Positions 16,933 through 32,260 of a DNA stretch of 32,586 nt are shown here, in pieces. The first letter of the stretch is position 1. Each line of letters begins with the position of its first letter. Both the position numbers and the translations under genes were made by a program. This DNA is from a virus, in IMG/VR virus record IMGVR_UViG_3300045009_000361, positions 1-32,586 of that record; one strand, given 5' to 3'. The notes below the pieces were generated by a model, which saw nothing but the letters and a program-made list of their open reading frames with translations, made no database searches and was not told the DNA's origin.

Positions 16933-17076
16933 ATGCAAAACGATGTCGACTTACTACCACTTGAGGTTTTAGCGGTGCAAATGCACGAGTTTTTTACGGT
17001 CTTAATAGAACGCGGTTTCACGGAAGACCAAGCCCTCAAAGTGCTAGTCATGAAGTTGGAGCAAGGCAATGGTTGA
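16933..17076 (+). CDS. 47-residue hypothetical protein upstream of portal
   Basis: The frame reads MQNDVDLLPLEVLAVQMHE, FFTVLIERGFTEDQALKVL, VMKLEQGNG and overlaps the portal ATG by 8 bases. It is helical and acidic with an ERGFTEDQALKV segment typical of small proteins placed beside portals or tail chaperones. The 56 bases after ssb hold no other gene. Confidence 0.55.
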   Translation: MQNDVDLLPLEVLAVQMHEFFTVLIERGFTEDQALKVLVMKLEQGNG

Positions 17077-18331
17077 TTTATCCGAAATCGGCACGACAGG
17101 CTTACGGCGTGCTGGTGGCTTCATCACCGAGGAGTTTCTGCCCTCCCTCCAGCAAGTACGAGGCACGAAAGTCTGGCGAGAGATGTCAGACAACGACCCC
17201 GTTATTGGCGCGATGCTTTACGCAATCGACAAAATCGTCACTCGACTTGACTGGCGAATAGATGCCTATGACGAGACACCCGAGGCTGCAGAGATACGTC
17301 AGTTCATAGAGGAATGCTTATATGACATGAGTGATTCGTGGGACGCCACACTCTCAGGAATCCTCTCAATGCTCACCTTTGGCTTCAGTTACCACGAAAT
17401 TGTTTACAAGCAAAGAGCTGGAGACAGCAAAGACCCAAAAAAGCGTTCTAAGTTCGACGACAAGAAAATCGGATGGCGTAAGTGGCCCATCAGGTCGCAA
17501 GAGACCTTGAACAATTGGAGGCTTGACCTCAATGGGGGCATACAAGGTGCGATATTTTTAGACCCGAGCACAGGACGACGTTTTGATATCCCCATCGACA
17601 AGGCATTATTATTTCGCACCACCACAGTAAAAAACAATCCCGAGGGACGTTCGCTTCTACGCAACGCCTACCGTCCGTGGTACTACAAGCGCCGAATCGA
17701 GGAAATCGAGGCGATAGGTATCGAGCGCGACCTTGTTGGGCTGCCCGTCGCACACGTGCCTCCCGAATATTTAAGTTCAAGCAGGACGGACGCACAGGCA
17801 GCCGTGTTGGGTCGTATCCAAGAAATCGTCACGCGGGTTAAACGCAACGAGCAAGAGGGCGTGATATTCCCCGTGATGTATGACGAGGCAGGTCACAAAC
17901 TTTTCGACTTGACGTTGCTAAACAGCGGTGGCTCAAGACAATTCGACACCGATAAGGTCATTACGAGATACGACACACGCATCGCGATGTCGATTCTTTC
18001 TGATTTTATTCTTCTAGGTCATGACCGTGTTGGCTCGTTCTCATTGGGTTCGTCAAAAATTGACCTTTGGACGATGGCAGTTGACGCAATAGCACAATCG
18101 ATTTCCGAGGTCATTAACAGCCATGCCATCCCACGGCTTTTGAGAATCAATGGTATGAATACAAACCTTACGCCAGAGTTGGCTTATGGTGACGTTTCTG
18201 CTGTGAATCTCACGGAGATGGCTGACTTCGTGCAGAAGTTGACCGCGAGCGGAGTCCTGACCCCAGACGAAAACCTTGAGAATTACATGCGCGAGTTAGG
18301 AAAGTTACCGCAGGCGACCGAGGCGGAATAA
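17069..18331 (+). CDS. portal protein (DUF935 / Mu gp29-like)
   Basis: A 420-residue protein. Key stretches are KVWREMSDNDPVIGAMLYAI, IRQFIEECLYDMSDSWDATL, LTFGFSYHEIVYK, NPEGRSLLRNAYRPWYYKRR, LVGLPVAHVPPEYL and GSFSLGSSKIDLWTMAVDAI, the pattern of the DUF935 portal group. The portal is the dodecameric ring through which terminase packs DNA and to which the head-tail connector attaches. GGAGCAAGGCA before the ATG at 17069 supplies a ribosome-binding site. It is immediately followed by the MuF-like gene, the usual order. Confidence 0.88.
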   Translation: MVDLSEIGTTGLRRAGGFITEEFLPSLQQVRGTKVWREMSDNDPVIGAMLYAIDKIVTRLDWRIDAYDETPEAAEIRQFIEECLYDMSDSWDATLSGILSMLTFGFSYHEIVYKQRAGDSKDPKKRSKFDDKKIGWRKWPIRSQETLNNWRLDLNGGIQGAIFLDPSTGRRFDIPIDKALLFRTTTVKNNPEGRSLLRNAYRPWYYKRRIEEIEAIGIERDLVGLPVAHVPPEYLSSSRTDAQAAVLGRIQEIVTRVKRNEQEGVIFPVMYDEAGHKLFDLTLLNSGGSRQFDTDKVITRYDTRIAMSILSDFILLGHDRVGSFSLGSSKIDLWTMAVDAIAQSISEVINSHAIPRLLRINGMNTNLTPELAYGDVSAVNLTEMADFVQKLTASGVLTPDENLENYMRELGKLPQATEAE

Positions 18332-19315
18332 GTGCCGCTAAGACCAGACAGGGACAAACTTCGTAGTCATCTGACCAAAGACCGCCATGTCCGACGGTCA
18401 CGTCTCGAGCCGCTGACAGCGGATGAGCGCGCGATATCTGCGGCGATAGCGCTTGGTGTAAAAAGGGCGCAAGACAGAATAAGGTCACGGCGTTTACTAG
18501 ATGCAATTGCTCGCAACAATCTAGTGGACATACAAGATTCGGTGGACACCGACGCTCTAAACAGCGTCTTTGAACCCTTGAGTGATTTACTGAAGAAGGT
18601 AATTCTTAAAGAATTAACAAAACAACTTGAATCCACGGGTGTTGCCACCGTGTTGACCTCGCTGCAGTTCGACCTTATCAACCCGAACGTGGTGCGTTAT
18701 GCGAGAGAACAGGCCGCCAAATTGGTCACACGCCTCACTGCAGAGCAGCGTAAGGCAGTGAATCAGGCAATCGTCGATTCCGTGATGGGCAAATTCACCG
18801 TAGATGAGACTGCTCGCATAATCCGCTCTTCTATCGGGCTGACAGAGCGTTATACGCAAGCGGTAGCGACGCGATATGAGGGAGTTAGGGATATAGCTCT
18901 CAAAGACAAATTAACGCCCGCTGCGGCTGCGAAAGTGGCCACCAAGGCAGCGGTCAAATATGCCGACAAACTGGTTCGAGCACGAGCCCGCACCATCGCA
19001 CGTACGGAAATCATGGCTGCCTCAAATGCGGGGAAACAAATTGGTTGGCAGACGGCAGTCGACCGTGGTGTGCTGACCTCGACCTCGCGCAAAAGATGGG
19101 TGCTGGCTGCTGATGCGTGTGAGATATGCCAGCGCATCGCTCAAGAGTTCAATCTGACCGCGGATATGCCCACAGTCAACATGGAATTTTACGACGATGA
19201 CTCAGGGTGGCATGGGCTGCAGCCGCCAGTTCACCCTAATTGTCGTTGCACGACTTCGCTGATTACACCTGCAAAAGCAATCATTGATGAGTTGCTGTTG
19301 CAAACGGTGGCGTGA
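18332..19315 (+). CDS. MuF-like minor head protein
   Basis: A 327-residue protein from a GTG directly after the portal stop. A helical N-terminal region of about 200 residues is followed by the MuF domain: RARARTIARTEIMAASNAGK, WVLAADACEICQRIAQEF with C263 and C266, and VHPNCRCTTSL with H301, C304 and C306. These residues form the domain's probable metal site. MuF proteins are minor capsid components at the portal; in temperate phages of other hosts toxin domains are fused to their C terminus. Here the protein ends about 20 residues after the Cys box without a toxin, and separate enzyme modules follow. Confidence 0.87.
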   Translation: MPLRPDRDKLRSHLTKDRHVRRSRLEPLTADERAISAAIALGVKRAQDRIRSRRLLDAIARNNLVDIQDSVDTDALNSVFEPLSDLLKKVILKELTKQLESTGVATVLTSLQFDLINPNVVRYAREQAAKLVTRLTAEQRKAVNQAIVDSVMGKFTVDETARIIRSSIGLTERYTQAVATRYEGVRDIALKDKLTPAAAAKVATKAAVKYADKLVRARARTIARTEIMAASNAGKQIGWQTAVDRGVLTSTSRKRWVLAADACEICQRIAQEFNLTADMPTVNMEFYDDDSGWHGLQPPVHPNCRCTTSLITPAKAIIDELLLQTVA

Positions 19316-19326
19316 GATTTTGACCC

Positions 19327-20724
19327 ATGCACAAAATAACCCTTGACCTAACTAAAGCCACGAGCAGCACGGACGTGCCTCTGACTTTGGTCGCTGCCGT
19401 ACGTAACGCAATCGAGCGTGGATTCACCGTGGCTGACTTGGTATTCAATCTGACCGACCGCGGCTATGACATGGTGCTGGTGCCTAAGGGCATGAAAAAC
19501 GGCATTCCTGTGCCGCTTTCACCGAATGAGTTGGTGCAGCGAATACAGAAACACCAAGGTGGTAGGCACGACCAACAATCTCACGGTAACTGGGCTGACT
19601 CTGGCTCACCAAAATTAAAAATTATTGGTCAATATCAAAAACCTTTTTTTGTGCCAAAAGAGCAAACAAGAGTAGTGCGTTATGAATCACAAAATGAAAA
19701 AACTGATTTTTTACTGTATGCAAAAAAGGGAACCAAACTTGAAGGCATATCTATATATGCACATCGCCTTAGTTCAAAAAACGATATGTTGGAAACGGTT
19801 GGTCAACTTGTTGATTGGGACGAAGATGACGGTACGTCGAAAATTATGCACGTGCATGTGTCATCTAGCCACCGACGAAGAGGCATCGCTTCTGCCATGC
19901 TGCGGTTGTATCGAGATATGTATCCTGAGAAAAAAATCAGACACTCCGAGTCTTTAACTCCAGACGGTAGAGCATGGGCAAGTGTCGTGAAGCATCAGTC
20001 GGGCACACACGACCAAGAAAGCCACGGGAATTGGGCTGACAAACTAAGTGGCACAAGGACGGGTGACAATCGACTAGACCTTTACGAGTCAATGGAATTG
20101 CTAAAGGGTCAACCTGACCCTCAACAATACCGCGTTTATGAGGCACAAGAGAAAGCCTTTCCTGGAAAACAAGTTATTGCTCCTGATTTTGACAATGACC
20201 CAAAAGCATATGGCTCTTCACAGGAATATAACGACGCCTATAAAAAATACTCAAAAGAGTACACCGCATACGTGCGAGCACAAACAAAAAACGTCATATC
20301 ACCACTTGCAAAAAAACATTTGAATGGTATGCCGAAGGGAGTTAAAAATTACATAGAGGAGGTTATTGCACAAGATTGGTTTGTGGAGGCTTTCGGCAGC
20401 GCCGATTTTTTTCCAACACTTGAAATCAAAATCAATCAAGCAAACGTGACTGCTGGGGGCTATTTTCAAGAATTTAACACCCGCACGAGGCGGAGCAGAC
20501 ACGGGATTACCATTGGTCGCAATTTCGCACAAGATGAAAGATTGATGTTGCATGAAATCGCCCATTACGCCACAGCCATAAGTGCCACAGAAAAATATCA
20601 ACACCATGGACGTGAGTGGGCGGGCAATTTTCTTTACATATTAGAAAAGCAATTTGGAAGAGCGAGCGCCGAGCGTCTGCGAAAAGCATTCGACAAAAAC
20701 AAGGTTGAGTACACCAATGATTGA
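19327..20724 (+). CDS. tagged cargo protein 1: GNAT-like domain and HExxH metallopeptidase
   Basis: A 465-residue protein made of modules. Residues 1-74 are an unrecognised N-terminal domain (LTLVAAVRNAIERGFTVADL). Tag copy 1 is K75-D91. Residues about 92-221 hold a GNAT-type acetyltransferase core with HVHVSSSHRRRGIASAM, the acetyl-CoA loop being R183-RRGIA. Tag copy 2 is K222-D238. The C-terminal 225 residues end in a zinc peptidase-like domain: L-H409-E-I-A-H413-Y and a later HHGREW (426-431), a SprT-like HExxH...HGxxW arrangement. The second half is visibly A/T-rich. The next gene overlaps by 8 bases. I infer a head-packaged multi-enzyme; enzyme activities are not proven. Confidence 0.8.
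   Translation: MHKITLDLTKATSSTDVPLTLVAAVRNAIERGFTVADLVFNLTDRGYDMVLVPKGMKNGIPVPLSPNELVQRIQKHQGGRHDQQSHGNWADSGSPKLKIIGQYQKPFFVPKEQTRVVRYESQNEKTDFLLYAKKGTKLEGISIYAHRLSSKNDMLETVGQLVDWDEDDGTSKIMHVHVSSSHRRRGIASAMLRLYRDMYPEKKIRHSESLTPDGRAWASVVKHQSGTHDQESHGNWADKLSGTRTGDNRLDLYESMELLKGQPDPQQYRVYEAQEKAFPGKQVIAPDFDNDPKAYGSSQEYNDAYKKYSKEYTAYVRAQTKNVISPLAKKHLNGMPKGVKNYIEEVIAQDWFVEAFGSADFFPTLEIKINQANVTAGGYFQEFNTRTRRSRHGITIGRNFAQDERLMLHEIAHYATAISATEKYQHHGREWAGNFLYILEKQFGRASAERLRKAFDKNKVEYTND
19549..19599 (+). repeat. HDQ-HGNW tag, copy 1
   Basis: Encodes KHQGGRHDQQSHGNWAD, residues 75-91 of cargo protein 1, standing before the GNAT-like domain. Confidence 0.9.
19990..20040 (+). repeat. HDQ-HGNW tag, copy 2
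   Basis: Encodes KHQSGTHDQESHGNWAD, residues 222-238 of cargo protein 1, standing before the metallopeptidase half. Confidence 0.9.
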
Positions 20725-23551
20725 AAAAATCGATATCGTCGACCCGATACCCCCCGCTCTGTTACCAAAACCCTACAAAGGCTCATTGCCTGAGTTCGCA
20801 ATGTTTAAACACGAGGGCGGGGGCCATGACCAAATGACACATGGTAATTGGGCTGATGGCAACGCCGACATAAAAACAGGCTTAGAAAGATTAGCCAGTC
20901 AATTTGATGACTTTGAAAATTTTAGTCGTGCTATAAGTCAAGACACTTTAAGGCCGAGAGCATGGCACATCGCAGGTGACGATTTTGAATTAGACCCAAA
21001 TTTCGAGCCTTCTGGAAGATTAGGTGAGCCAACACGAGGCGGTGGTCTTTTCGTGGGTAGTCCAGAATATTGGGAAGAATACGCCACGAATCGTGATACT
21101 GTCATTGAGTTTGATTTAAGTAATCTAGATTTCACAAGTAATCCGCTACAAAATACAAACGCGGATTTTTACGCAGACCAATCAGGTAATCAAGGTTTTT
21201 TTGTCCGACCTACGGCGTTTCCAAAATTGCAAGAGGTGGGGCGTTACACCCTCGATGAGGCCAAGGAGCGCGCAGAACAACAACAAAAACAAATGCCAAA
21301 ATCAAAAGCGGAGGCACGAGAGATTTGGGAGCGGGCACGCAACGTTGCAAAACACCAAGCAGGTCAGCACGACCAGCAAAGTCATGGAAATTGGGCCACA
21401 GGTTATACGGAGGCAGAGCGCGCAGGTATTGAGGCGATGCAGGACGAGGGGCCGACGCTGGAGGAAATACAAGCCTTCCTCAAGGGCGGGAGACCCAAGC
21501 CACTAACTATGGAACAAGCGACACTTCTTATTAACAATGAGGAAGAGCTTTACGAGGCTTACGTTGCGGCCGTTGGCAAATACGTGAGTGACAAGAATCC
21601 AAAGGCAGACGCGGACAAACTCAACGATTTAATTGAAACTGCACTAAACGACGACACCTACATCGAACGATATATCGAAGATTACGACATTCGCACGGAG
21701 TTTTCTGAGGAATTACAAGTCGGCAGACCCGATGAGATAGACATGATGGAAAAATTTAACGAGGTGTACGGAGTCTCAGTCGATGACGGGAAATTAGAGA
21801 CAGTGGTAGAGGGAGTCAAGCGCCTTGGCGAAAACACGATTGAGGTGACGGGAAACGTTTATGCGGCGCAGATTGTTGTTGGAGGCTTTGAGAGGGTTTT
21901 GTCGCTCAATCGCGGAGCACTGTCGGTCGAGCACCAGCTGTTCCAAATAGAGCCCGATTACAGAGGGTTAGGGCTCGGACAAGAGTTTTTGAGGCGGAGT
22001 GAGGATTGGTACATCGCGCGCGGCATCACCAAAATCGGAGTGAGGACGGCGTGGGACGGCGCCTACACGTGGTCGAGGGCGGGGTTCGACTTTTCTCGCC
22101 CAATGGAGGCAGTCCGCACTTTAATTAAAGGCGTGAGGAATGCCGTCAACAATGACGTGTTGGATGTTGCGGAATTAGACGTTTGGAGGGACTTACTTGA
22201 GCGCTCGACGGAGGGCCTCAACCTGTACCAAAAAGACGGCGACCTTTTCATCGACTACGAAAGTACTAAAGACATCAACGTCGAGGACTTCCCGCTACCC
22301 GCTGAGTTTGCGAGGGCGCCGCAGGCGAAAGAGGTCATGAGAGACATGGGAATGGGAATGGTTAAGTACCTCACACCCGAGGGCCGTGCCCTTGCGGAAG
22401 GGCCAATAGACAGAGACGGCGACGGCATGGTGTTTGATGGTACGCCGCGCGAGCGTCCGGCGAGACCGAGTGAACGTGTTGCCGCCGCTAAATGGAGTGC
22501 GAGAGACACCAAACTCCAAGCGATATCTAACGCTTACTACAAATACGGTAAAGACGATTTTATGAATGAGAATGAAGGAAGCGACCAAGACAACCCCGAG
22601 TTGGACAAAGCAATAGACAAGATTTTGGGCAAAAACAGTTTCATGAAGCGCTTGATGTCATTCAGTTACTCGGTAATCAAGCATCAAGCAGGGACACATG
22701 ACCAGCAAAGCCACGGGAACTGGGCTGATGGTCTGGGTTATCGAGACAAAAATTTTGATAGAAGTGGTCTTAGTCAAGACGACATCACGAAGGCTTATCG
22801 AGAGGCAGGTGTTAGTGAGGGAAAAATAAATCAAGAGGTTGAGGCTCTAGCATTTTATACAGGTGCAGGATTTTCAGACATAAATAGAACTCTTCGTGAG
22901 CAAGAACTCGACCCCACACTCGACGATAGTGAGTGGACAACGGAGCAAATAGAGGGCGCAATTTTTACTGTTTTTTCTGACGAGTACAAAAACTATCAAA
23001 ATTTCGCAGGCGACGACGCCTCACTTGAGGATTTTATCGACACAAACATCGAGAGAATAACGGAGTATTTAGAAGGTGCTCGTGAAGAGCGACTTACTGC
23101 TGCGGAACGCCTTACCTCTCCGTTACGAGGGTTAATAGAACGCATGCCCGCGATGCTCGGAAACACTACGGTGTATAGAGTTTTTTCGAAAAATGTAACT
23201 GATGAGCTTGACGTGGGTGACGTAATCACCGATAAAGGTTTTCTATCGACGACCGCACGGGATTTGACTAATCCTCAAGAAGCCGTGGCGCGCTCTCACT
23301 TTGCGGACATGTCAGGCACAGATGATGTGGTGGGTGTGATATTGCCTAAAAGCGGCGGGGACGGGAAGGGGCTTTACGTAAATTCTTTTCTTGAGGCTAT
23401 AGGTGAGCCCATACCTCCTTTTTTTGATACAGAATCAGAGGTGTTATTACCACCATCAACCCGCCTACGTTTAGTCAGAGTTGAAAAGCGTAGTGCGGAA
23501 GGGTCAAACGGTTTGATAGAAGACGTTTATGTATTTGAGCGTGAGAATTAA
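20717..23551 (+). CDS. tagged cargo protein 2: GNAT-like and ADP-ribosyltransferase domains
   Basis: A 944-residue protein from ATG 20717, inside the previous gene's end. Order: short leader; tag 3 (K31-D47); module A to about 205, with RAWHIAGDDFELD, GGGLFVGSPEYWEEY and NQGFFVRPTAFPKL, perhaps a distant ADP-ribosyltransferase-like fold; tag 4 (K212-T228); a helical region; a GNAT-like domain with YRGLGLGQEF (RGLGLG at 416-421) and TAWDGAYTWSRAGF; an EF-hand-like loop DRDGDGMVFDGT (565-576); tag 5 (K655-D671); and a C-terminal ADP-ribosyltransferase with the R-S-E signature: R821 in VYRVF, S844-T-T in GFLSTTA, and E906-S-E908 in DTESEVLLPPSTRLRLV. The ExE form implies arginine modification in known families. 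Targets are unknown. Confidence 0.82.
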   Translation: MIEKIDIVDPIPPALLPKPYKGSLPEFAMFKHEGGGHDQMTHGNWADGNADIKTGLERLASQFDDFENFSRAISQDTLRPRAWHIAGDDFELDPNFEPSGRLGEPTRGGGLFVGSPEYWEEYATNRDTVIEFDLSNLDFTSNPLQNTNADFYADQSGNQGFFVRPTAFPKLQEVGRYTLDEAKERAEQQQKQMPKSKAEAREIWERARNVAKHQAGQHDQQSHGNWATGYTEAERAGIEAMQDEGPTLEEIQAFLKGGRPKPLTMEQATLLINNEEELYEAYVAAVGKYVSDKNPKADADKLNDLIETALNDDTYIERYIEDYDIRTEFSEELQVGRPDEIDMMEKFNEVYGVSVDDGKLETVVEGVKRLGENTIEVTGNVYAAQIVVGGFERVLSLNRGALSVEHQLFQIEPDYRGLGLGQEFLRRSEDWYIARGITKIGVRTAWDGAYTWSRAGFDFSRPMEAVRTLIKGVRNAVNNDVLDVAELDVWRDLLERSTEGLNLYQKDGDLFIDYESTKDINVEDFPLPAEFARAPQAKEVMRDMGMGMVKYLTPEGRALAEGPIDRDGDGMVFDGTPRERPARPSERVAAAKWSARDTKLQAISNAYYKYGKDDFMNENEGSDQDNPELDKAIDKILGKNSFMKRLMSFSYSVIKHQAGTHDQQSHGNWADGLGYRDKNFDRSGLSQDDITKAYREAGVSEGKINQEVEALAFYTGAGFSDINRTLREQELDPTLDDSEWTTEQIEGAIFTVFSDEYKNYQNFAGDDASLEDFIDTNIERITEYLEGAREERLTAAERLTSPLRGLIERMPAMLGNTTVYRVFSKNVTDELDVGDVITDKGFLSTTARDLTNPQEAVARSHFADMSGTDDVVGVILPKSGGDGKGLYVNSFLEAIGEPIPPFFDTESEVLLPPSTRLRLVRVEKRSAEGSNGLIEDVYVFEREN
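20807..20857 (+). repeat. HDQ-HGNW tag, copy 3
   Basis: Encodes KHEGGGHDQMTHGNWAD, residues 31-47 of cargo protein 2, standing before module A. Confidence 0.9.
21350..21400 (+). repeat. HDQ-HGNW tag, copy 4
   Basis: Encodes KHQAGQHDQQSHGNWAT, residues 212-228 of cargo protein 2, standing before the helical region and GNAT-like domain. Confidence 0.9.
22679..22729 (+). repeat. HDQ-HGNW tag, copy 5
   Basis: Encodes KHQAGTHDQQSHGNWAD, residues 655-671 of cargo protein 2, standing before the ADP-ribosyltransferase domain. Confidence 0.9.
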
Positions 23552-24709
23552 ATGAGCCGATTCATCACCTTACGAGAGCACGTACAGATAACCCGCGGCA
23601 AGAAAATCATCAAACACCAATCAGGAGGCCACGACCAAGAATCGCATGGGAACTGGGCTGATGGCGGAAGTGGAACGTTCACAGGGGGACAATTTGGAAT
23701 AGCGTTAAAAAACTATAGTGTAAAACAAGACATCGACACCCCACAAGTTGCAAAAGCGTTCGTCGCAAAACGTTTGAGCGAGAGAATTGATGCCACGACT
23801 GAAGAATTAGTTAATGCCTTTCAAGATGATGGTCTCGGGGTACAAACGCCATTTGGTAAAAAATTGCAAGCGGCTGTTGACGCCGATGCGATTTGGACGG
23901 ATAATCTTGGTCGTCCAATATCGAGCGTTGACCAGGATGAACTAGGAACTCACGTTGCGTTAAATAGTTATGGCAACTTACTTTTTTACACGATTGGCTC
24001 TCACGATGTGCCACCGGGTGACGTGTTGGAACGACCATGGGTCAAGCGTGGCTCACCTGAGGCCAAAGAATACGCACGCGTAGCAGCCGTTGGTGAGCTT
24101 GTAAATCAATGGGCAACAACGTCGAATGATGATGAAGCAATCTCTTTGGCCATTCAAAAAGCGGCTGAAGTGGAATTCAATATGAAGAATGTCGCTCCGT
24201 GGCAGACAACGGATGACACGAAAATACGTCTGGACTATCAGATTCGGAATAATCAGAAAGTGCATCGTGCGTTCTTACGCGCGCAGTATGAAGATACGCA
24301 GAGAGTACTGGCCGACATGGGCGTCAAAGAAGTTGAGTTGTATCGTGGCAAGATTGTTGACGCAACAAATCCGCTAGGAACTGTTGCTAAACAACATGCT
24401 TATGGCACTTCGTCGACGACCACCGTGCAACAAAGACCTTTGTCAAGTTGGACATTCGACGTGGGTGTAGCTGATAGTTTCTCAGAGGGGGCTCAACCAT
24501 TTTCATCTATTGGCGTGACCATGAGAACACTCGTGCCTGCGCGCCGAATTCTTGCAACGTCGCTAACTGGGGTTGGCTCGATGGTCGAGGGTGAAGTGGT
24601 GATTCTTGGTGGCGGTTCTATGAAAACGAATGTGCGGCTTCCTGACGATTGGTTTGCGTTATACGAACCTGTGGCGGTTGATGACAACACGACGGACTAC
24701 AAGCCCTGA
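23552..24709 (+). CDS. tagged cargo protein 3: ADP-ribosyltransferase
   Basis: A 385-residue protein starting directly after the stop of cargo protein 2. A 20-residue basic leader precedes tag 6 (K21-D37). Residues about 45-255 are mainly helical and unrecognised. The C-terminal domain is a clear ADP-ribosyltransferase of the R-S-E type: R265 in ELYRGKIVD, S298-S-W-T in RPLSSWTFDVGVADSFSEG, RILATSLTG, and E346-G-E348 in MVEGEVVILGG. It has the layout of bacterial exotoxin-like and T4 Alt-like enzymes that transfer ADP-ribose from NAD to protein Arg. With the tag and its place among head genes, delivery with the virion is the favoured inference. Confidence 0.85.
   Translation: MSRFITLREHVQITRGKKIIKHQSGGHDQESHGNWADGGSGTFTGGQFGIALKNYSVKQDIDTPQVAKAFVAKRLSERIDATTEELVNAFQDDGLGVQTPFGKKLQAAVDADAIWTDNLGRPISSVDQDELGTHVALNSYGNLLFYTIGSHDVPPGDVLERPWVKRGSPEAKEYARVAAVGELVNQWATTSNDDEAISLAIQKAAEVEFNMKNVAPWQTTDDTKIRLDYQIRNNQKVHRAFLRAQYEDTQRVLADMGVKEVELYRGKIVDATNPLGTVAKQHAYGTSSTTTVQQRPLSSWTFDVGVADSFSEGAQPFSSIGVTMRTLVPARRILATSLTGVGSMVEGEVVILGGGSMKTNVRLPDDWFALYEPVAVDDNTTDYKP
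23612..23662 (+). repeat. HDQ-HGNW tag, copy 6
   Basis: Encodes KHQSGGHDQESHGNWAD, residues 21-37 of cargo protein 3. Its DNA is nearly identical to copy 7. Confidence 0.9.
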
Positions 24710-24710
24710 A

Positions 24711-27287
24711 ATGAATAAGCCAATCAACATCGATGATGATTTGTTAAGTACCGACTGGATAAAAACCTCGTCGTGGGATTTGCCAACCGACGCTGAATAT
24801 TTTCAAGACACATATAGTGATGACTGGCGTGACGCTCTTAGCAAATTGCCTGCATGGCAAGCAGCCCCCGCGAGTCTTAAAAACAAAATGAAAAAACACC
24901 AATCAGGAACACACGACCAAGAATCGCATGGGAATTGGGCACGCGGTTTTACGGAGGATTTAAAAAACTTTGACCCAAAGGCGCCCGTAGCGACAAGCCC
25001 TCGCAATGCGGGGGGAGTTACTGAGCGAATGTGGTGGGCATGGGAAAAGGGGCCCGACGGTAACAATTACGTGGAGCTTTATCGCAAATATGCTGCTGAA
25101 GTTTTAGGTTTACCCATTCCAGAAAACACGGGTTATGAACGTGGTGGCTATCGCGACTACATGTTGGAACGTGGGTGGGGTGCTCCAACAAAAGCGAAAA
25201 CTGAGGCTTTCTTAAATGCGATTAGCAACAGTCAACCTCAACCAACTCTGTATCGAGGCATTGGTCAATACGCGACACAAGCACCAGAAGAAAGAGAAAC
25301 GTTTGAGACATTTGCAAATGTAAAAAAGGGCGACCAACTCGATATGGTCATGGCGTCAACAACCCGTAGCCTTGGTGTTGCTGCTTGGTATGCGGCTAAT
25401 AGGTCGGGCTTTCCCTACGAGACGGACAGGGGCAAAATTCTCATAAAAATTCAAGCGGGGGCAAAAGGTTGGAGTCCATCAAAAAAACAGGCTTGGTGGC
25501 CTGATGACCACGAGGTTGTGACTAGCGGCAAATTCGAGGTGGTTAATGTTGAGAAAGTCAAAACGCCTTTTTGGTTTAGACAACCTTACGAAGTGCGACG
25601 ATTGGCTTATCGAGGGGGTAACGAGGAGGTGCCTGAATCACAAATCAATTACCAAATTTCAGATTTCAGCACAGGTCTTGCGGAGCTAAACGATTACATA
25701 CCGAGTGCTGAGGGCGGGCGAAAGATTTATGACGCGATGATGGCGAACGACATGTCCCAGTACGAGACACCAACAAAAAAAATAGTAAGACGGTCTGATA
25801 CAAATATCGCGAACGGTCACGTGTGGACACTACGGGAGCCGACTGAGTTCACCATAATTGAGATGAAAATGATTGAGCCCCACGCTGTAAAAAAGGCCAA
25901 TGATTTTGGCAACGATTTTTATTGGCTATTTGAGGAGACGCCCTTTATACGCGATGTCAAATTAGAAAAACACCAATCAGGAAGCCACGACCAATTAAGT
26001 CACGGAAATTGGGCTACGGGCATAGACCCCGAGGTCGGTCAAAAGGTAAGACAGTTCACCCAAGAATGGGGTGGCCTTTCAATCAACATGGTCGATGGCT
26101 CCATGCCAGATAAGGGCTACATGGTCGCCAAGCCGCCTCAGTTCGGCGAGGTAGTGGACGCAGCCGACTTTCTGAACCCCTCTAGGGGTGATAAGATTCT
26201 GTCAGCCTATATGCGCAGGCATAAGGCAGATTTGAGTACGGGCAAGAATTATTTGGGCACGTGGCTCAATGAGGGCAAGGTATATCTCGACGTATCGCAG
26301 AACGTACAGCAGCGTGAGACAGCCGTAAGGTTAGGCAGGGAACGTAACCAGAAAGCAATCTGGGATGTTGTGAACATGGTAGAAATAGAGACGGGGGGAA
26401 CGGGTGCCGCAGAAAAAGCAAGTCGACATGGTGGAATTGAAGAGTTTGAAAGATATGACCGACGAAGAGATAGACGAGTACGCCAAGGTTATCTACAAGA
26501 AAATGGCTTTAGCTATGAAGGAACGTCAAGCCAAACAGGGTTAGACAAGCATTTCAGTCATGAGCAGCGAGACCACGGCAACTGGGCGCGCGGCAAGAGC
26601 TCGTTACCCGCGGTAGAAAATCCAAAGGCAAATCGCAGCCCTGAGATAAATCAAATCGCACAGGATATTCGCAAGCGACGCGCAGCCGACGAGCCGAAGG
26701 TCACGCAAGACATGATGACGTTAGCGGAAAAATACGGCGGAAACATGGTCGACCTGCAATACCGTTTGAAAAGCGAGAAATCTATCGCACGCAAGGTCGA
26801 GGCTGACGCGCAAGAAAAAAGAATCACACCGCAGAAGGCGGCAGAAGACATGAGTGACGTTATCCGCTACACCATGCAATTCGACACCGACGGATACACC
26901 CGCGGAGTTCAAGGCACAATTGCAGGCTTACAAGAGGCGGGCTACACGATTGATGAATCACGAGTAAAGAATTTTTGGGAGCCTATAGATGGCTATCAAG
27001 GTCTGAATGCGAAGATGCGTCACCCCAACGGATATGAGATTGAGTTGCAATTTCACACGCCCGAGTCCTCAAGGGTCAAGGCAAATACACACGCCGTCTA
27101 CGAGGTATATCGCGAGACAAATAATCCGCAACAGAGATACAAGTTGTATGACCGCATGCGACGCATAGCACGGCGAGCGACAACACCGTCTGGAGCCCTC
27201 GCCATCGGTCTACCCGCGGTGATACCTTTAGTTGTGGGGGGTAAGGAATTTCTCTTGAAGATGCTGAAAAAGCGGTTTCTCAAATGA
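24711..27287 (+). CDS. tagged cargo protein 4: ADP-ribosyltransferase-like and RelA/SpoT-like domains
   Basis: An 858-residue protein from ATG 24711. Order: acidic leader; tag 7 (K62-R78); an ADP-ribosyltransferase-like domain with R182 in LYRGIGQY, S216-T-T in VMASTTRSLGVAAWYA and D266-H-E268 where ExE is expected; a linker to about 419; tag 8 (K420-T436); a domain with KGYMVAKPP, KVYLDVSQNV and QKAIWDVVNMVEIETGGTG (to 565), a combination I believe recurs in phage head proteins; an Arg-rich stretch (565-612) that reads like an out-of-frame translation; degenerate tag 10 (K613-R627); and a RelA/SpoT-like nucleotidyltransferase with RLKSEKSIARK (685-695), DVIRYT (716-721), YQGLNAKM and E778-L-Q-F-H-T. 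It ends in a hydrophobic segment and basic tail. Function is inferred from these folds. Confidence 0.8.
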   Translation: MNKPINIDDDLLSTDWIKTSSWDLPTDAEYFQDTYSDDWRDALSKLPAWQAAPASLKNKMKKHQSGTHDQESHGNWARGFTEDLKNFDPKAPVATSPRNAGGVTERMWWAWEKGPDGNNYVELYRKYAAEVLGLPIPENTGYERGGYRDYMLERGWGAPTKAKTEAFLNAISNSQPQPTLYRGIGQYATQAPEERETFETFANVKKGDQLDMVMASTTRSLGVAAWYAANRSGFPYETDRGKILIKIQAGAKGWSPSKKQAWWPDDHEVVTSGKFEVVNVEKVKTPFWFRQPYEVRRLAYRGGNEEVPESQINYQISDFSTGLAELNDYIPSAEGGRKIYDAMMANDMSQYETPTKKIVRRSDTNIANGHVWTLREPTEFTIIEMKMIEPHAVKKANDFGNDFYWLFEETPFIRDVKLEKHQSGSHDQLSHGNWATGIDPEVGQKVRQFTQEWGGLSINMVDGSMPDKGYMVAKPPQFGEVVDAADFLNPSRGDKILSAYMRRHKADLSTGKNYLGTWLNEGKVYLDVSQNVQQRETAVRLGRERNQKAIWDVVNMVEIETGGTGAAEKASRHGGIEEFERYDRRRDRRVRQGYLQENGFSYEGTSSQTGLDKHFSHEQRDHGNWARGKSSLPAVENPKANRSPEINQIAQDIRKRRAADEPKVTQDMMTLAEKYGGNMVDLQYRLKSEKSIARKVEADAQEKRITPQKAAEDMSDVIRYTMQFDTDGYTRGVQGTIAGLQEAGYTIDESRVKNFWEPIDGYQGLNAKMRHPNGYEIELQFHTPESSRVKANTHAVYEVYRETNNPQQRYKLYDRMRRIARRATTPSGALAIGLPAVIPLVVGGKEFLLKMLKKRFLK
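24894..24944 (+). repeat. HDQ-HGNW tag, copy 7
   Basis: Encodes KHQSGTHDQESHGNWAR, residues 62-78 of cargo protein 4, before the ADP-ribosyltransferase-like domain. Confidence 0.9.
25968..26018 (+). repeat. HDQ-HGNW tag, copy 8
   Basis: Encodes KHQSGSHDQLSHGNWAT, residues 420-436 of cargo protein 4, before the AIWD...TGGTG domain. Confidence 0.9.
26404..26544 (+). other. alternative-frame ORF inside cargo protein 4 (relic or overlapping gene)
   Basis: In the +1 frame a GTG at 26404 (or ATG at 26428) opens VPQKKQVDMVELKSLKDMT, DEEIDEYAKVIYKKMALAM, KERQAKQG and a TAG at 26542. This reads like a natural helical phage protein, whereas the main frame there is Arg-rich and odd (EEFERYDRRRDRRVRQGY). 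A one-base indel in the nearby G6 (26393-26398) or A5 (26413-26417) run would join it to the upstream domain. Confidence 0.35.
26547..26591 (+). repeat. HDQ-HGNW tag, degenerate copy 10
   Basis: Encodes KHFSHEQRDHGNWAR, residues 613-627 of cargo protein 4, before the RelA/SpoT-like domain. The QxGx spacer is shortened and Asp is replaced by Glu, but both the first and last parts of the tag are kept. Confidence 0.7.
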
Positions 27288-27511
27288 GCCGATATTTCTA
27301 CCTTTATGACGGCGACAAAATCGTCTCCCTTTTCAAACTCGACGTAGACGACGAGGCCAAGACCTTTGATGAGTTCATGTGGACATCAGCAGGGTGGGTA
27401 AAGAGCGAGTACGGGCGGGTTTTCAGTTTCGTCATGAATGGCGCCCATGACATGCTGGAGGTCAGCTCCGAGGAAGTCTCGCAGTCCGTACCAGCGGCTT
27501 TAAAAAACTAA
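27284..27511 (+). CDS. hypothetical protein
   Basis: A 75-residue soluble protein (MSRYFYLYDGDKIVSLFKLD, VDDEAKTFDEFMWTSAGWVK, SEYGRVFSFVMNGAHDML). It is coupled to cargo protein 4 by an ATGA overlap and has no tag. The family is unrecognised. It could be a chaperone or immunity-type partner of a cargo enzyme because of this coupling, but nothing in the sequence shows it. Confidence 0.6.
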   Translation: MSRYFYLYDGDKIVSLFKLDVDDEAKTFDEFMWTSAGWVKSEYGRVFSFVMNGAHDMLEVSSEEVSQSVPAALKN

Positions 27512-27546
27512 AAGACAAGCAGGGCGCCACCAACTAGCATTTATGA

Positions 27547-27563
27547 CTCCCACAGGAGGTGGC
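27547..27563 (+). promoter_or_regulatory. ribosome-binding site inside a small hairpin
   Basis: A CTCC-CACA-GGAG hairpin (27547-27558) covers the strong AGGAGGT site (27554-27560) of the gene starting at 27564. GCCACC at 27526-27531 can alternatively pair with GGTGGC at 27558-27563. Such pairing could throttle initiation. Short stems like these can arise by chance. Confidence 0.35.
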
Positions 27564-27992
27564 ATGTCCATCAAGCAGGAAAACGGCAGATTCACCGTGT
27601 ACTCCAGAGACGGCAAGCGTCGTTTTGGAACATATGACTCAAAGGAAAAAGCAGAAGAGCGCCTCACTCAGATTGAGAGAATTTACAAAGCAAAGGGCTT
27701 GAAGGTTGGCGATTTCGTCTCGTGGGACTCATCAGGCGGGCGTGCTCAGGGCAAAATTGTTCGTGTAGTTCGAGACGGCAAAATCAATGTGCCAGATTCC
27801 AGCTTTACCATCGCGGGCACCGAGGACGACCCTGCAGCCTTGATTCAACTTTACAGAGACGGCGAGAGGACAGACCGACAGGTCGGACACAAATTGTCGA
27901 CGTTAAACCTAATCCGTCCGCTGGAAAAGATGCAGCCAACCTCAGCCCAAGTCCATGTGCCCACCACACAGCGAGAGCGTAAAAAAAAATAA
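27564..27992 (+). CDS. DUF2945/HVA1-like domain protein
   Basis: A 142-residue protein from the ATG at 27564, set by AGGAGGT. The N-terminal part, GRFTVYSRDGKRRFGTYDSK followed by EKAEERLTQIERI, is a short element often found fused to phage proteins. The second part, LKVGDFVSWDSSGGRAQGKI, DDPAALIQLYRDGERTDRQV and GHKLSTLNLI, matches the small Tudor/SH3-like DUF2945 (HVA1) domain. A binding rather than catalytic role is likely. It lies between the cargo genes and the protease. Confidence 0.7.
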   Translation: MSIKQENGRFTVYSRDGKRRFGTYDSKEKAEERLTQIERIYKAKGLKVGDFVSWDSSGGRAQGKIVRVVRDGKINVPDSSFTIAGTEDDPAALIQLYRDGERTDRQVGHKLSTLNLIRPLEKMQPTSAQVHVPTTQRERKKK

Positions 27993-28006
27993 AGTCTGAG
28001 CCAGTC

Positions 28007-29497
28007 ATGGCTCAGAAAGACAATTTTAAACCGCCCGTTGGTGTAGCGAGAGCCGCGGAGCGCGCGCTCCGTTGGATAGCAGACGGTAAGCAAGGCTCAG
28101 GTTTTACAGACGTGGGTAGACGACGCGCAGCACAATTAGCGGCGCGTCAACCCGTCTCAGCAGACACCATCAAGCGCATGAAGTCCTTTTTTGCTAGGCA
28201 CGCGGTCGATAAAGAGGCGTCAGGTTTTCGTTTGGGCGAGAAGGGCTATCCGTCGGCAGGTCGCGTCGCATGGGACGCATGGGGTGGTGACGCTGGTAGG
28301 GCATGGGCAAACGCGATTGCTGTCAGGTTAGAACGCGAGTTGGAGAAGCACGCACAAAACGAGCATGACCAGTTGACGCACGGTAATTGGGCTAATGGTG
28401 GCGGCGATTCCACCAAAATCTATCAAACGGCAAATTTTGAGGAGGCGGTAGCAAGATTAGCCAAAGGGGAAATGGTAGAGCTAAAAGATGTTCAAGCTGT
28501 CCACACATTCGTTAAAGATTTACATCGTTACGCAATCGCTGCCCAAAAGCGAGGTGAGCAAGCGCCAAACCTCGATTTATGCAAAGTGTCTGTGCCTAAG
28601 ACAAATCTATTTTGTGGCAAATCATTGGGGATTCAACGTGTTGATATGCCACAACTTGAGGGAACACCACGTGAGGGCTCAGAAGCCTCGAAGTTGCCCC
28701 GCTCAAAAAGCGGCAATGTCAATGTTGGAAAACAGTTCACTGATTATCTAGAACGTCAAAACGTCGAGGTGCGCAACCGAACCGTAAGGGCATCGTCATT
28801 AAGTGCCTCACAGGGTCAGTTGGTCGGGCCGAAAGTGGCTGCCCTCATGGATAAAGGCACTGATGCATTGGCTGACGAAAGAATTTTTGTGTCACGCGAC
28901 GGTTACGTGATAGACGGACACCACCGATGGGCTGCGCTAATCGGTCTCGATGCAAGTGACAATCAGTTGGGCGATGTCGATATCAAGGTTGTAGAGATAG
29001 ATATGCCAATTGCTCAAGTTTTAAAAGAGGCAAACGATTTCACGAGGCGAGTCGGCATCTTGCCGCAGGTGGCAAAGGCGTTAATCAGTTATGTCGGCAT
29101 AGCACAGACATTAAAAAAGGAACAGGAGCGCCGATACACGCTGGGCCCCCTATACATCCCCGACCGTGTTGACGCACACGGCGAATTTACCGATGCCGAC
29201 GAATTACAGAAGGCGGTGTGGAAATACGTTCGAGACGGCGACCGACGAATACGTTTGCAGCACAACCGCGACGTGGTAGCCGGAGAGTGGGTCGAGGTAA
29301 TGACTTGGCCGTATGAAATGACCATTGAGCACCAAATGGCAGACGGTTCAATTCAAAAAGCCGAGTATCCCGCTAACACCGTCTTCATGGGCGTAGTTTG
29401 GAAGGATTGGGCGTGGAATCTTGTAAAACAAGGCAAAGTGCGCGGCTATTCCATAGGAGGTAAGGCAGAGCGCGTCGAGGTTGAGTTAGAAGATTGA
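28007..29497 (+). CDS. prohead protease (XkdF/S78_2-like) fused to tag and ParB-like domain
   Basis: A 496-residue protein. Residues 1-105 form a small domain (PPVGVARAAERALRWIADGK ... GYPSAGRVAWDAWGGDAGRA) that I recognise from phage head proteins. Tag 9 is K114-N130. Residues about 250-345 hold a ParB-like fold with VSRDGYVIDGHHRWAALIGL (H305-H306-R307). The C-terminal 130 residues match the XkdF/Peptidase S78_2 group: LYIPDRVDAHGEF, H419 in RLQHNRD and S482 in RGYSIGGKAE as probable catalytic residues. It should mature the prohead and perhaps trim cargo. It stands three genes before the major capsid protein, as expected for a head-maturation protease. Confidence 0.8.
   Translation: MAQKDNFKPPVGVARAAERALRWIADGKQGSGFTDVGRRRAAQLAARQPVSADTIKRMKSFFARHAVDKEASGFRLGEKGYPSAGRVAWDAWGGDAGRAWANAIAVRLERELEKHAQNEHDQLTHGNWANGGGDSTKIYQTANFEEAVARLAKGEMVELKDVQAVHTFVKDLHRYAIAAQKRGEQAPNLDLCKVSVPKTNLFCGKSLGIQRVDMPQLEGTPREGSEASKLPRSKSGNVNVGKQFTDYLERQNVEVRNRTVRASSLSASQGQLVGPKVAALMDKGTDALADERIFVSRDGYVIDGHHRWAALIGLDASDNQLGDVDIKVVEIDMPIAQVLKEANDFTRRVGILPQVAKALISYVGIAQTLKKEQERRYTLGPLYIPDRVDAHGEFTDADELQKAVWKYVRDGDRRIRLQHNRDVVAGEWVEVMTWPYEMTIEHQMADGSIQKAEYPANTVFMGVVWKDWAWNLVKQGKVRGYSIGGKAERVEVELED
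28346..28396 (+). repeat. HDQ-HGNW tag, copy 9
   Basis: Encodes KHAQNEHDQLTHGNWAN, residues 114-130 of the prohead protease. The spacer differs from the cargo copies but HDQ and HGNWA are intact. Confidence 0.88.
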
Positions 29498-31282: not shown

Positions 31283-32260
31283 ATGCCACAACCAACTAGC
31301 AACCAAGTCCACATTGACGCGATTCTCACCAACATCTCTGTCGCCTACATGCAGAGAGCGGAGAATTTCATTGCCTCATCCGTATTTCCATTAATTCCGA
31401 CGGAAAAACAATCTGATAAATATTTTTTGTATACGAAAAATGACTGGCTACGTGATGAGGCGCAACGTCGTGGCCCGGGCACGGAATCGGCAGGCGGGGG
31501 ATACAACCTCACCACCGCTACGTACTCGGCAGATGTCTTTGCATTCCACAAGGACATCAGCGACCAAATCCGGGCGAACGCCGATGCCCCGCTAAACCTC
31601 GACCGTGAGGCCGTGGACTTCGTAACCCACCGCCTCCTGCTACGTCGCGAAATTCAGTTCATGGCTGATTTCATGACGACAAGCATCTGGTCGTTGGATA
31701 TCACGGGTGTCGCGTCGTCACCGAGCGGCAACCAAGTAATCCAGTGGAGTGACTACGCAAACAGCGACCCGATTGATAACGTGGAAGCCGGAAAAGCGTA
31801 TGTATTGTCAAAAACCGGGTATTTGCCGAATACGCTCGTCCTCGGTTATGACGTATTCCGCGAGTTGAAGAATCACCCCGACTTGGTGGACAGAATCAAA
31901 TACACGAGTAGTCAGACGATTACTGCGGACATGATGGCCCGCATGTTTGAGTTGGACAGGGTGCTTGTGTCGCAGTCAGTAAAGGCAACCAACAACGAGG
32001 GCGGCACCGAGGGTTACGACTTCACGATGGGCAAGCAAGCTCTTCTGGCTTACGTGCCCGCGTCCCCTGGATTGCTGACCCCTGCCGCTGGATACACCTT
32101 TGTATGGACTGGTGTGTCACAAGGGCTAGGCGCAAACATCGGCGTTTCATCGTTCCGCATGGAATCGCTGAAATCGACACGAGTTGAAGCAGAGTTGGCG
32201 TTTGACAACAAGGTTGTCTCACAAGACCTCGGCTACTTCTTCACCTCGATTGTTGCCTAA
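31283..32260 (+). CDS. major capsid protein
   Basis: A 325-residue protein. VHIDAILTNISVAYMQRAEN followed by FIASSVFPLIPTEKQSDKYF, DEAQRRGPGTESAGGGYNL, VFAFHKDISDQIRANADAPL and REIQFMADFM match a group of HK97-fold capsid proteins I know from metagenomic phages. LVLGYDVFRELKNHPDLVDR and RMFELDRVLVSQSVKATNNE form the later domain. A GGGAGAGTGAG leader precedes the ATG at 31283. Confidence 0.88.
   Translation: MPQPTSNQVHIDAILTNISVAYMQRAENFIASSVFPLIPTEKQSDKYFLYTKNDWLRDEAQRRGPGTESAGGGYNLTTATYSADVFAFHKDISDQIRANADAPLNLDREAVDFVTHRLLLRREIQFMADFMTTSIWSLDITGVASSPSGNQVIQWSDYANSDPIDNVEAGKAYVLSKTGYLPNTLVLGYDVFRELKNHPDLVDRIKYTSSQTITADMMARMFELDRVLVSQSVKATNNEGGTEGYDFTMGKQALLAYVPASPGLLTPAAGYTFVWTGVSQGLGANIGVSSFRMESLKSTRVEAELAFDNKVVSQDLGYFFTSIVA

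What the first reader, a model, noticed from the sequence alone, without database searches (positions are those of the whole stretch)
26706..27287. RelA/SpoT-like nucleotidyltransferase as a phage cargo domain
The C terminus of cargo protein 4 contains RLKSEKSIARK, DVIRYT, a YQGLNAKM strand and ELQFHT in the order seen in (p)ppGpp synthetases and toxic small alarmone synthetases. A head-delivered alarmone or pyrophosphate-transfer enzyme could stop host translation or growth at entry. It is preceded by the degenerate tag and followed by a hydrophobic segment and a basic tail.
Basis: partly seen in the sequence, partly recalled or inferred. Interest (0 to 1): 0.75.

Follow-up and report, generated by a model that had tools for sequence, protein, structure and literature searches.

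The report
Tagged phage alarmone-synthetase toxin with immunity gene
The end of this phage protein is almost certainly a nucleotide-poisoning enzyme of the (p)ppApp/(p)ppGpp-synthetase toxin kind, followed at once by its immunity gene; the enzyme is a known kind, but here, as in many uncultured phages, it hangs behind a short repeated peptide tag instead of the usual MuF head domain.

Summary
Window 26676-27197 (C terminus of the 885-aa ORF 24630-27287) encodes a complete RelA/SpoT-type synthetase (SYNTH) domain. Its closest solved relative is SaEAS, an exported alarmone synthetase (phmmer 6.5e-18; model pLDDT 93.7; VIA Z 23.2); next comes the T6SS toxin Tas1/Apk1 (Z 13.8). All six catalytic residues named for SaEAS (D, R, K, N, E, Q) are present, and the syn motifs (RYT, GxN, FH) are of the adenosine 3'-pyrophosphokinase (Apk) type. 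PF04607 itself is only a sub-threshold hit (E 0.01). In known phages this domain is the C terminus of MuF-Apk2 toxins. Here a degenerate HDQxxHGNWA tag sits 42 residues upstream and there is no MuF domain. That tag-Apk-IapK layout recurs in 24 of 70 nonredundant loci (11 of 51 found by enzyme motif alone); in 15 the immunity domain is fused to the head-maturation protease. So: a toxin-immunity pair of a known kind in a new delivery arrangement. Activity, packaging and delivery remain inferred.

The parts
24630..27287 (+). Cargo protein 4 ORF (885 aa; annotated start may lie further in): three tags, an N-terminal domain with ART-like motifs (read by eye), a phrog_17808-type domain, the Apk/SYNTH domain and a hydrophobic-basic tail
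24894..24941 (+). Tag 1 KHQSGTHDQESHGNWA
25968..26015 (+). Tag 2 KHQSGSHDQLSHGNWA
26547..26588 (+). Tag 3 (degenerate) KHFSHEQRDHGNWA, 42 residues before the Apk domain
26676..27197 (+). Apk/EAS-type alarmone synthetase (SYNTH) domain, residues 683-856
26763..26795 (+). RLKSEKSIARK, ATP-binding basic motif; two Lys (K714, K722) invariant in 70 sequences
26856..26873 (+). DVIRYT (syn2): D743 and R746 match SaEAS D121 and R124; RYT is the Apk signature
26964..26978 (+). VKNFW: K780 matches SaEAS K154
26991..27017 (+). GYQGLNAKM (syn3): N793 matches SaEAS N169; GxN is the Apk signature
27042..27059 (+). ELQFHT (syn4): E805 and Q807 match SaEAS E182 and Q184
27189..27284 (+). Hydrophobic segment and basic C-terminal tail, similar in relatives L015 and L020
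27284..27511 (+). IapK-type immunity gene (75 aa), start overlapping the toxin stop codon (ATGA)
28007..29497 (+). XkdF-like head-maturation protease (PF14550) with its own tag and a ParB-like (by eye) N-terminal domain; in relatives its N terminus carries the IapK domain
28346..28393 (+). Tag in the protease protein, KHAQNEHDQLTHGNWA
17069..18331 (+). Portal protein
18332..19315 (+). Separate MuF-type minor head protein, without tag or toxin domain
31283..32260 (+). Major head protein (phrog_1005)

Best explanation
The C-terminal domain of cargo protein 4 is an active toxic alarmone synthetase of the adenosine 3'-pyrophosphokinase/exported alarmone synthetase (Apk/EAS) kind. It would move pyrophosphate from ATP to the 3'-OH of ATP/ADP (possibly also GTP/GDP), draining ATP and poisoning the cell. 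The adjacent 75-aa protein (27284-27511) is its IapK-type immunity protein, which would block the active site while virions are made. The cargo protein is probably loaded into the procapsid through its short HDQxxHGNWA tags, in place of the fused MuF domain used by Apk2 toxins. It would be freed of immunity during head maturation and injected with the DNA. Shown: domain identity, intact catalytic residues, adjacent IapK homologue, head-gene context, recurrence of tag-Apk-IapK. Inferred: activity and nucleotide preference, the tag as loading signal, release from immunity, injection.
For: PDB 8vx3 (SaEAS) by sequence, E 6.5e-18. AF2 model pLDDT 93.7; Foldseek's top hits are all 8vx3, then Tas1; VIA Z 23.2, rmsd 1.8 over 187 residues for 8vx3, 13.8 for Tas1. 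Catalytic residues D/R/K/N/E/Q present and near-invariant in 70 sequences (residue roles from PMC12691689). Apk-type syn motifs RYT and GxN (PMC12226406). GenBank homologues are the MuF head proteins of Streptococcus, Pasteurella and Mannheimia phages, followed by iapK and usually aph1; members from these hosts are proven bactericidal or toxic, with (p)ppApp synthesis shown in vitro for two. IapK profile trained without the window hits ORF 27284-27511 at E 3.1e-10, the next window ORF at E 51; shuffles score at most 10 bits against 39.3; 39% identity to L020. Gene order portal, MuF, cargo, IapK, protease, scaffold, major head protein. Tag-Apk in 24 of 70 nonredundant loci, 23 of them with IapK. 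A well-supported 33-row tree clade mixes tagged and MuF-fused forms, so the two look interchangeable.
Against: No assay and no virion proteomics. PF04607 is below its cut-off. Syn motifs do not fix the substrate: SaEAS shares RYT, GLN and FHT and makes both (p)ppApp and (p)ppGpp. Packaging through the tag rests on position and module swapping only. Unlike most known Apk2 loci, no Aph1 hydrolase is encoded in the window. Tags also occur before domains not known to be toxins and in the protease, so they may serve another purpose such as cleavage or scaffolding.
Confidence: 0.75

Rival explanations
1. Same enzyme, different product: it makes mainly (p)ppGpp, or pyrophosphorylates the tRNA CCA end as FaRel2/CapRel do, and so stops translation rather than draining ATP.
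For: Same SYNTH superfamily; the VIA list includes the tRNA pyrophosphokinase CapRel (Z 12.2) and FaRel2 (Z 7.9). VpEAS and AaEAS make only (p)ppGpp.
Against: Much closer to SaEAS and to the Apk2 domains. Carries the Apk-type RYT/GxN motifs rather than the RSH-type ones. An IapK-type immunity protein accompanies proven (p)ppApp synthetases.
Confidence: 0.2
2. Not an injected weapon: a structural or assembly protein of the head whose SYNTH domain is a relic, or acts inside the producing cell during the late phase (for example slowing the host, or excluding other phages).
For: It sits in the head cluster; GenBank relatives are annotated only as head morphogenesis proteins. Delivery by the head has not been shown even for Apk2 (discussed as a hypothesis in PMC5576092).
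Against: Intact active site across 70 divergent relatives and a dedicated immunity partner in 23 of 24 tagged loci argue against a relic; a protein meant to act in the producer would not need linked immunity.
Confidence: 0.15
3. The 75-aa ORF is not an immunity protein but an unrelated small head protein that happens to follow the toxin.
For: No hit in Pfam, PHROGs or NCBIfam; direct BLAST to the GenBank IapKs is not significant; an early profile of 20 sequences did not separate it from shuffles.
Against: Broader profile built without it: E 3e-10; single-pair E 3e-19 to the IapK domain next to the L020 toxin, one of the window toxin's nearest relatives; nearly all profile hits lie directly downstream of Apk genes.
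Confidence: 0.07

Closest known systems
Apk2: MuF-fused adenosine 3'-pyrophosphokinase toxins of temperate phages (S. pneumoniae, M. haemolytica, P. multocida, B. caccae; PMC12226406)
   Same: Homologous toxin domain (29-34% identity to phage members), same position in the head cluster, IapK-type immunity gene next door, Apk-type syn motifs.
   Different: No MuF domain in the toxin protein; short HDQxxHGNWA tags instead; domain joined to other cargo domains; no Aph1 hydrolase in the window.
SaEAS, exported alarmone synthetase of Streptomyces albidoflavus (PDB 8vx3; PMC12691689)
   Same: Closest solved structure (Z 23.2, 28% identity), all six catalytic residues.
   Different: SaEAS is a stand-alone Sec-exported enzyme without immunity gene or phage context.
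Tas1/Apk1, T6SS (p)ppApp synthetase toxin of Pseudomonas aeruginosa (PDB 6ox6)
   Same: Same fold (Z 13.8) and delivered-toxin logic with an immunity protein.
   Different: PAAR-linked T6SS effector; 20% identity; different delivery.
RelA/SpoT domains in phage polyvalent proteins (PMC5512222)
   Same: Alarmone synthetase as one of several domains of a phage cargo protein, proposed to act at entry.
   Different: The passages read describe no HDQ tag, no IapK partner and no fusion of immunity to the maturation protease.

Membership tests
RSH synthetase (SYNTH) superfamily | SYNTH fold | tested here: met
   AF2 pLDDT 93.7; VIA Z 23.2 to 8vx3, 13-14 to RelP/RelQ-type SAS
RSH synthetase (SYNTH) superfamily | ATP/Mg-binding residues (SaEAS D121, R124, K154, N169, E182, Q184) | tested here: met
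   Read from the alignment with residue roles; conservation
Pfam PF04607 RelA_SpoT | Score above the curated cut-off (27 bits) | tested here: not met
   16.5 bits, E 0.01; 22 of 64 relatives match at E <= 0.01, best 1.8e-4. A curation threshold, not a structural criterion
Adenosine 3'-pyrophosphokinase (Apk) | Apk-type syn2-4 motifs (RYT, GxN, YH) | tested here: met
   RYT and GLN exact; syn4 is FH as in SaEAS and 52 of 70 relatives
Adenosine 3'-pyrophosphokinase (Apk) | (p)ppApp synthesis | not testable with these tools
   Needs an enzyme assay
Apk2 (MuF polymorphic toxin) | N-terminal MuF domain in the toxin protein | tested here: not met
   No MuF match in the 885-aa protein; its phrog_7625 match covers only the C-terminal part; MuF is a separate protein at 18332-19315
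Apk2 (MuF polymorphic toxin) | Adjacent IapK immunity gene | tested here: met
Apk2 (MuF polymorphic toxin) | Adjacent Aph1 HD-type (p)ppApp hydrolase | tested here: not met
   Profile from five phage Aph1 proteins finds none in the window
IapK immunity family | Sequence homology and place directly downstream of an Apk domain | tested here: met
   E 3.1e-10 with a model built without the window; start overlaps the toxin stop
IapK immunity family | Known structure match | tested here: inconclusive
   Model pLDDT 90.5; no convincing PDB match
toxSAS acting on tRNA (FaRel2/CapRel type) | Pyrophosphorylation of the tRNA CCA end | not testable with these tools
   Fold relatives only

The most novel reading that the evidence does not exclude
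The HDQxxHG(N/S)W tag is a general procapsid-loading signal that replaces the MuF domain, so one phage carries several tagged toxins. In these phages the immunity protein is tied to the head-maturation protease (fused in 15 of 24 tagged loci), so that immunity is removed from the toxin only when the protease matures the head: a built-in arming switch.
Probability: 0.3. Interest if true: 0.78.

Novelty: new variant of a known kind. Interest (0 to 1): 0.52.

Why it matters
Phage-borne alarmone toxins are so far characterised as MuF fusions from a few cultured prophages. This locus and its relatives suggest that the same enzyme is widespread in uncultured phages behind a short tag, next to other presumed effector domains, with immunity often built into the maturation protease. 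If the tag loads proteins into heads, it gives a testable answer to how phages choose which proteins to inject, and a small handle for studying virion cargo.

Tried and rejected
(1) Frameshift between the middle domain and the Apk domain: another frame at 26427-26545 reads MVELKSLKD...KQG (read by eye), but relative L017 keeps the same GGTG...DRRVR sequence in the window's frame, so the long ORF is taken as real. (2) Single-sequence searches of viral and genome collections with the toxin and of viral contigs with the 75-aa protein found nothing; alignment queries worked. (3) Direct BLAST of the 75-aa ORF against the GenBank IapKs: not significant; solved by an iterated profile and by nearer relatives. 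(4) PDB fold search with the IapK model: no match above Z 4.4. (5) Papers on the tag or on immunity-protease fusions: none found, in an open-access library only. (7) Selection bias: the loci were picked by RYT or E-Q-HT motifs and the loci by the tag itself, so motif invariance and tag counts are partly built in; by enzyme motif alone 11 of 51 viral loci are tagged, and none of the loci from cellular genomes.

Full report
OBSERVATION. The window is a whole IMG/VR virus record of 32,586 bases. The profile match runs over residues 683-856, nt 26676-27197, so the domain begins slightly upstream of the reported start. The degenerate tag (26547-26588), the hydrophobic segment and the basic tail are real.

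WHAT THE DOMAIN IS. A single-sequence search of solved structures gives one strong hit, 8vx3, at E 6.5e-18. This is SaEAS, an exported alarmone synthetase of Streptomyces albidoflavus (PMC12691689). Pfam RelA_SpoT is matched only weakly (16.5 bits, cut-off 27, E 0.01), and 22 of 64 relatives match it at E <= 0.01. An AlphaFold2 model on 64 sequences has mean pLDDT 93.7. Foldseek ranks 8vx3 first and Tas1 next; VIA-align gives Z 23.2 (rmsd 1.8, 187 residues) for 8vx3, 13.8 for Tas1/Apk1, and 12-14 for ordinary small alarmone synthetases. The residues named for SaEAS (D121, R124, K154, N169, E182, Q184) correspond to D743, R746, K780, N793, E805 and Q807 here. They are near-invariant in 70 nonredundant sequences, with the caveat that loci were collected by two of these motifs. 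The syn motifs are RYT and GLN, the forms described for adenosine 3'-pyrophosphokinases rather than for (p)ppGpp synthetases. SaEAS has the same motifs and makes both products, so the substrate stays open. NCBIfam also matches the C-terminal part of XopAD-type proteins (E 3.6e-29), a group that PMC12691689 lists among exported alarmone synthetases.

RELATIVES AND IMMUNITY. All 42 GenBank phage matches are in Streptococcus, Pasteurella, Haemophilus/Aggregatibacter and Mannheimia phages, mostly annotated as head morphogenesis or minor head proteins. In the six fetched they are followed by a 68-73-aa gene and usually an HD hydrolase. This is the published apk2-iapK-aph1 arrangement, whose toxin domains are toxic and make (p)ppApp. 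In the window a 75-aa ORF starts inside the toxin stop (ATGA). Direct comparison with GenBank IapKs is not significant. A profile iterated over other loci, never including the window, reaches E 3.1e-10 for this ORF against 12,148 ORFs, while the next window ORF has E 51. The best of 2,000 shuffles scores 10 bits against 39.3. Its nearest relative found, beside the L020 toxin, is 39% identical. No Aph1 hydrolase is present in the window.

DELIVERY ARRANGEMENT. The toxin protein has no MuF domain; MuF is a separate protein at 18332-19315. Instead, ten KH..HDQ..HGNWA tags lie in five genes between MuF and the capsid genes: cargo 1 to 4 and the maturation protease. Of 70 nonredundant Apk loci (window included), 24 have such a tag within 110 residues upstream of the domain; 23 of these have IapK, none has the hydrolase, and in 15 the IapK domain is the N terminus of the XkdF-like head-maturation protease. 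Counting only loci found by enzyme motif, 11 of 51 are tagged. In L021, L023 and L024 toxin and IapK share one ORF, and in L025 toxin, IapK and protease do (assembly error cannot be excluded for the single L025 case). No Apk locus from cellular genomes is tagged. On a tree of 120 domains the window groups with four tagged relatives (98/84), inside a 33-row clade (99/87) that mixes tagged, MuF-fused and very long untagged proteins. Exchange of tag and MuF around a conserved toxin suggests that the two do the same job.

MECHANISM. Shown by computation: a complete Apk/EAS-type domain, a cognate-type immunity gene, a head-cluster context, and a recurrent tag-toxin-immunity layout. Inferred: enzymatic activity, preference for ATP as acceptor, the tag as loading signal, release from immunity on maturation, injection and harm to the recipient. 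The common fusion of IapK to the maturation protease suggests that immunity is brought to the procapsid and removed when the protease acts; this is a hypothesis.

COMPARISON AND NOVELTY. RelA/SpoT domains in phage cargo were predicted in 2017 (PMC5512222; PMC5576092), and MuF-Apk2 toxins are biochemically characterised (PMC12226406). The enzyme is therefore a known kind. By definition it is not an Apk2, because the MuF domain was tested and is absent; it works like one. The tagged, MuF-less arrangement and the IapK-protease fusion were not found described in the open papers searched, which is a limited library. Verdict: new variant of a known kind.

Noticed in passing
L015, L016, L017, L020, L111, L156, L171 (downstream of Apk): The IapK-type immunity domain is fused to the N terminus of the XkdF-like head-maturation protease.
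   Followed up: partly
window 19327-29497: Ten KH..HDQ..HGNWA tags in five head-region genes, including the maturation protease; portal and MuF carry none.
   Followed up: partly
window 22700-23548: C-terminal part of cargo 2 matches ADP-ribosyltransferase exoenzyme PF03496 (E 6e-8).
   Followed up: no
window 24945-25967 and 23552-24709: First domain of cargo 4 and cargo 3 show ART-like motifs by eye (LYRG, STT/SS, late E), but no Pfam ART hit.
   Followed up: no
window 26016-26546: Middle domain of cargo 4 (phrog_17808, E 1e-11) recurs in L017 and L022 in front of a ParB-like domain and the Apk domain.
   Followed up: partly
L053, L071, L086 and L087 upstream of the Apk domain: Other short motifs (NPDQPRDERGRF-like; HYGIPGMKWGVRR in L087) stand where the HDQ tag stands elsewhere, possibly further tag classes.
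   Followed up: no
window 28007-29122: The protease protein carries a ParB-like domain (by eye) also found as cargo in L017 and after IapK in L136; in Arthrobacter phage Kovu a protein annotated RNA ligase ends in the same protease.
   Followed up: partly
window 17069-18331: Portal is 57% identical to that of Arthrobacter phage Kovu; an actinobacterial host is possible but unproven. Kovu itself has no HDQ tags in that region.
   Followed up: partly
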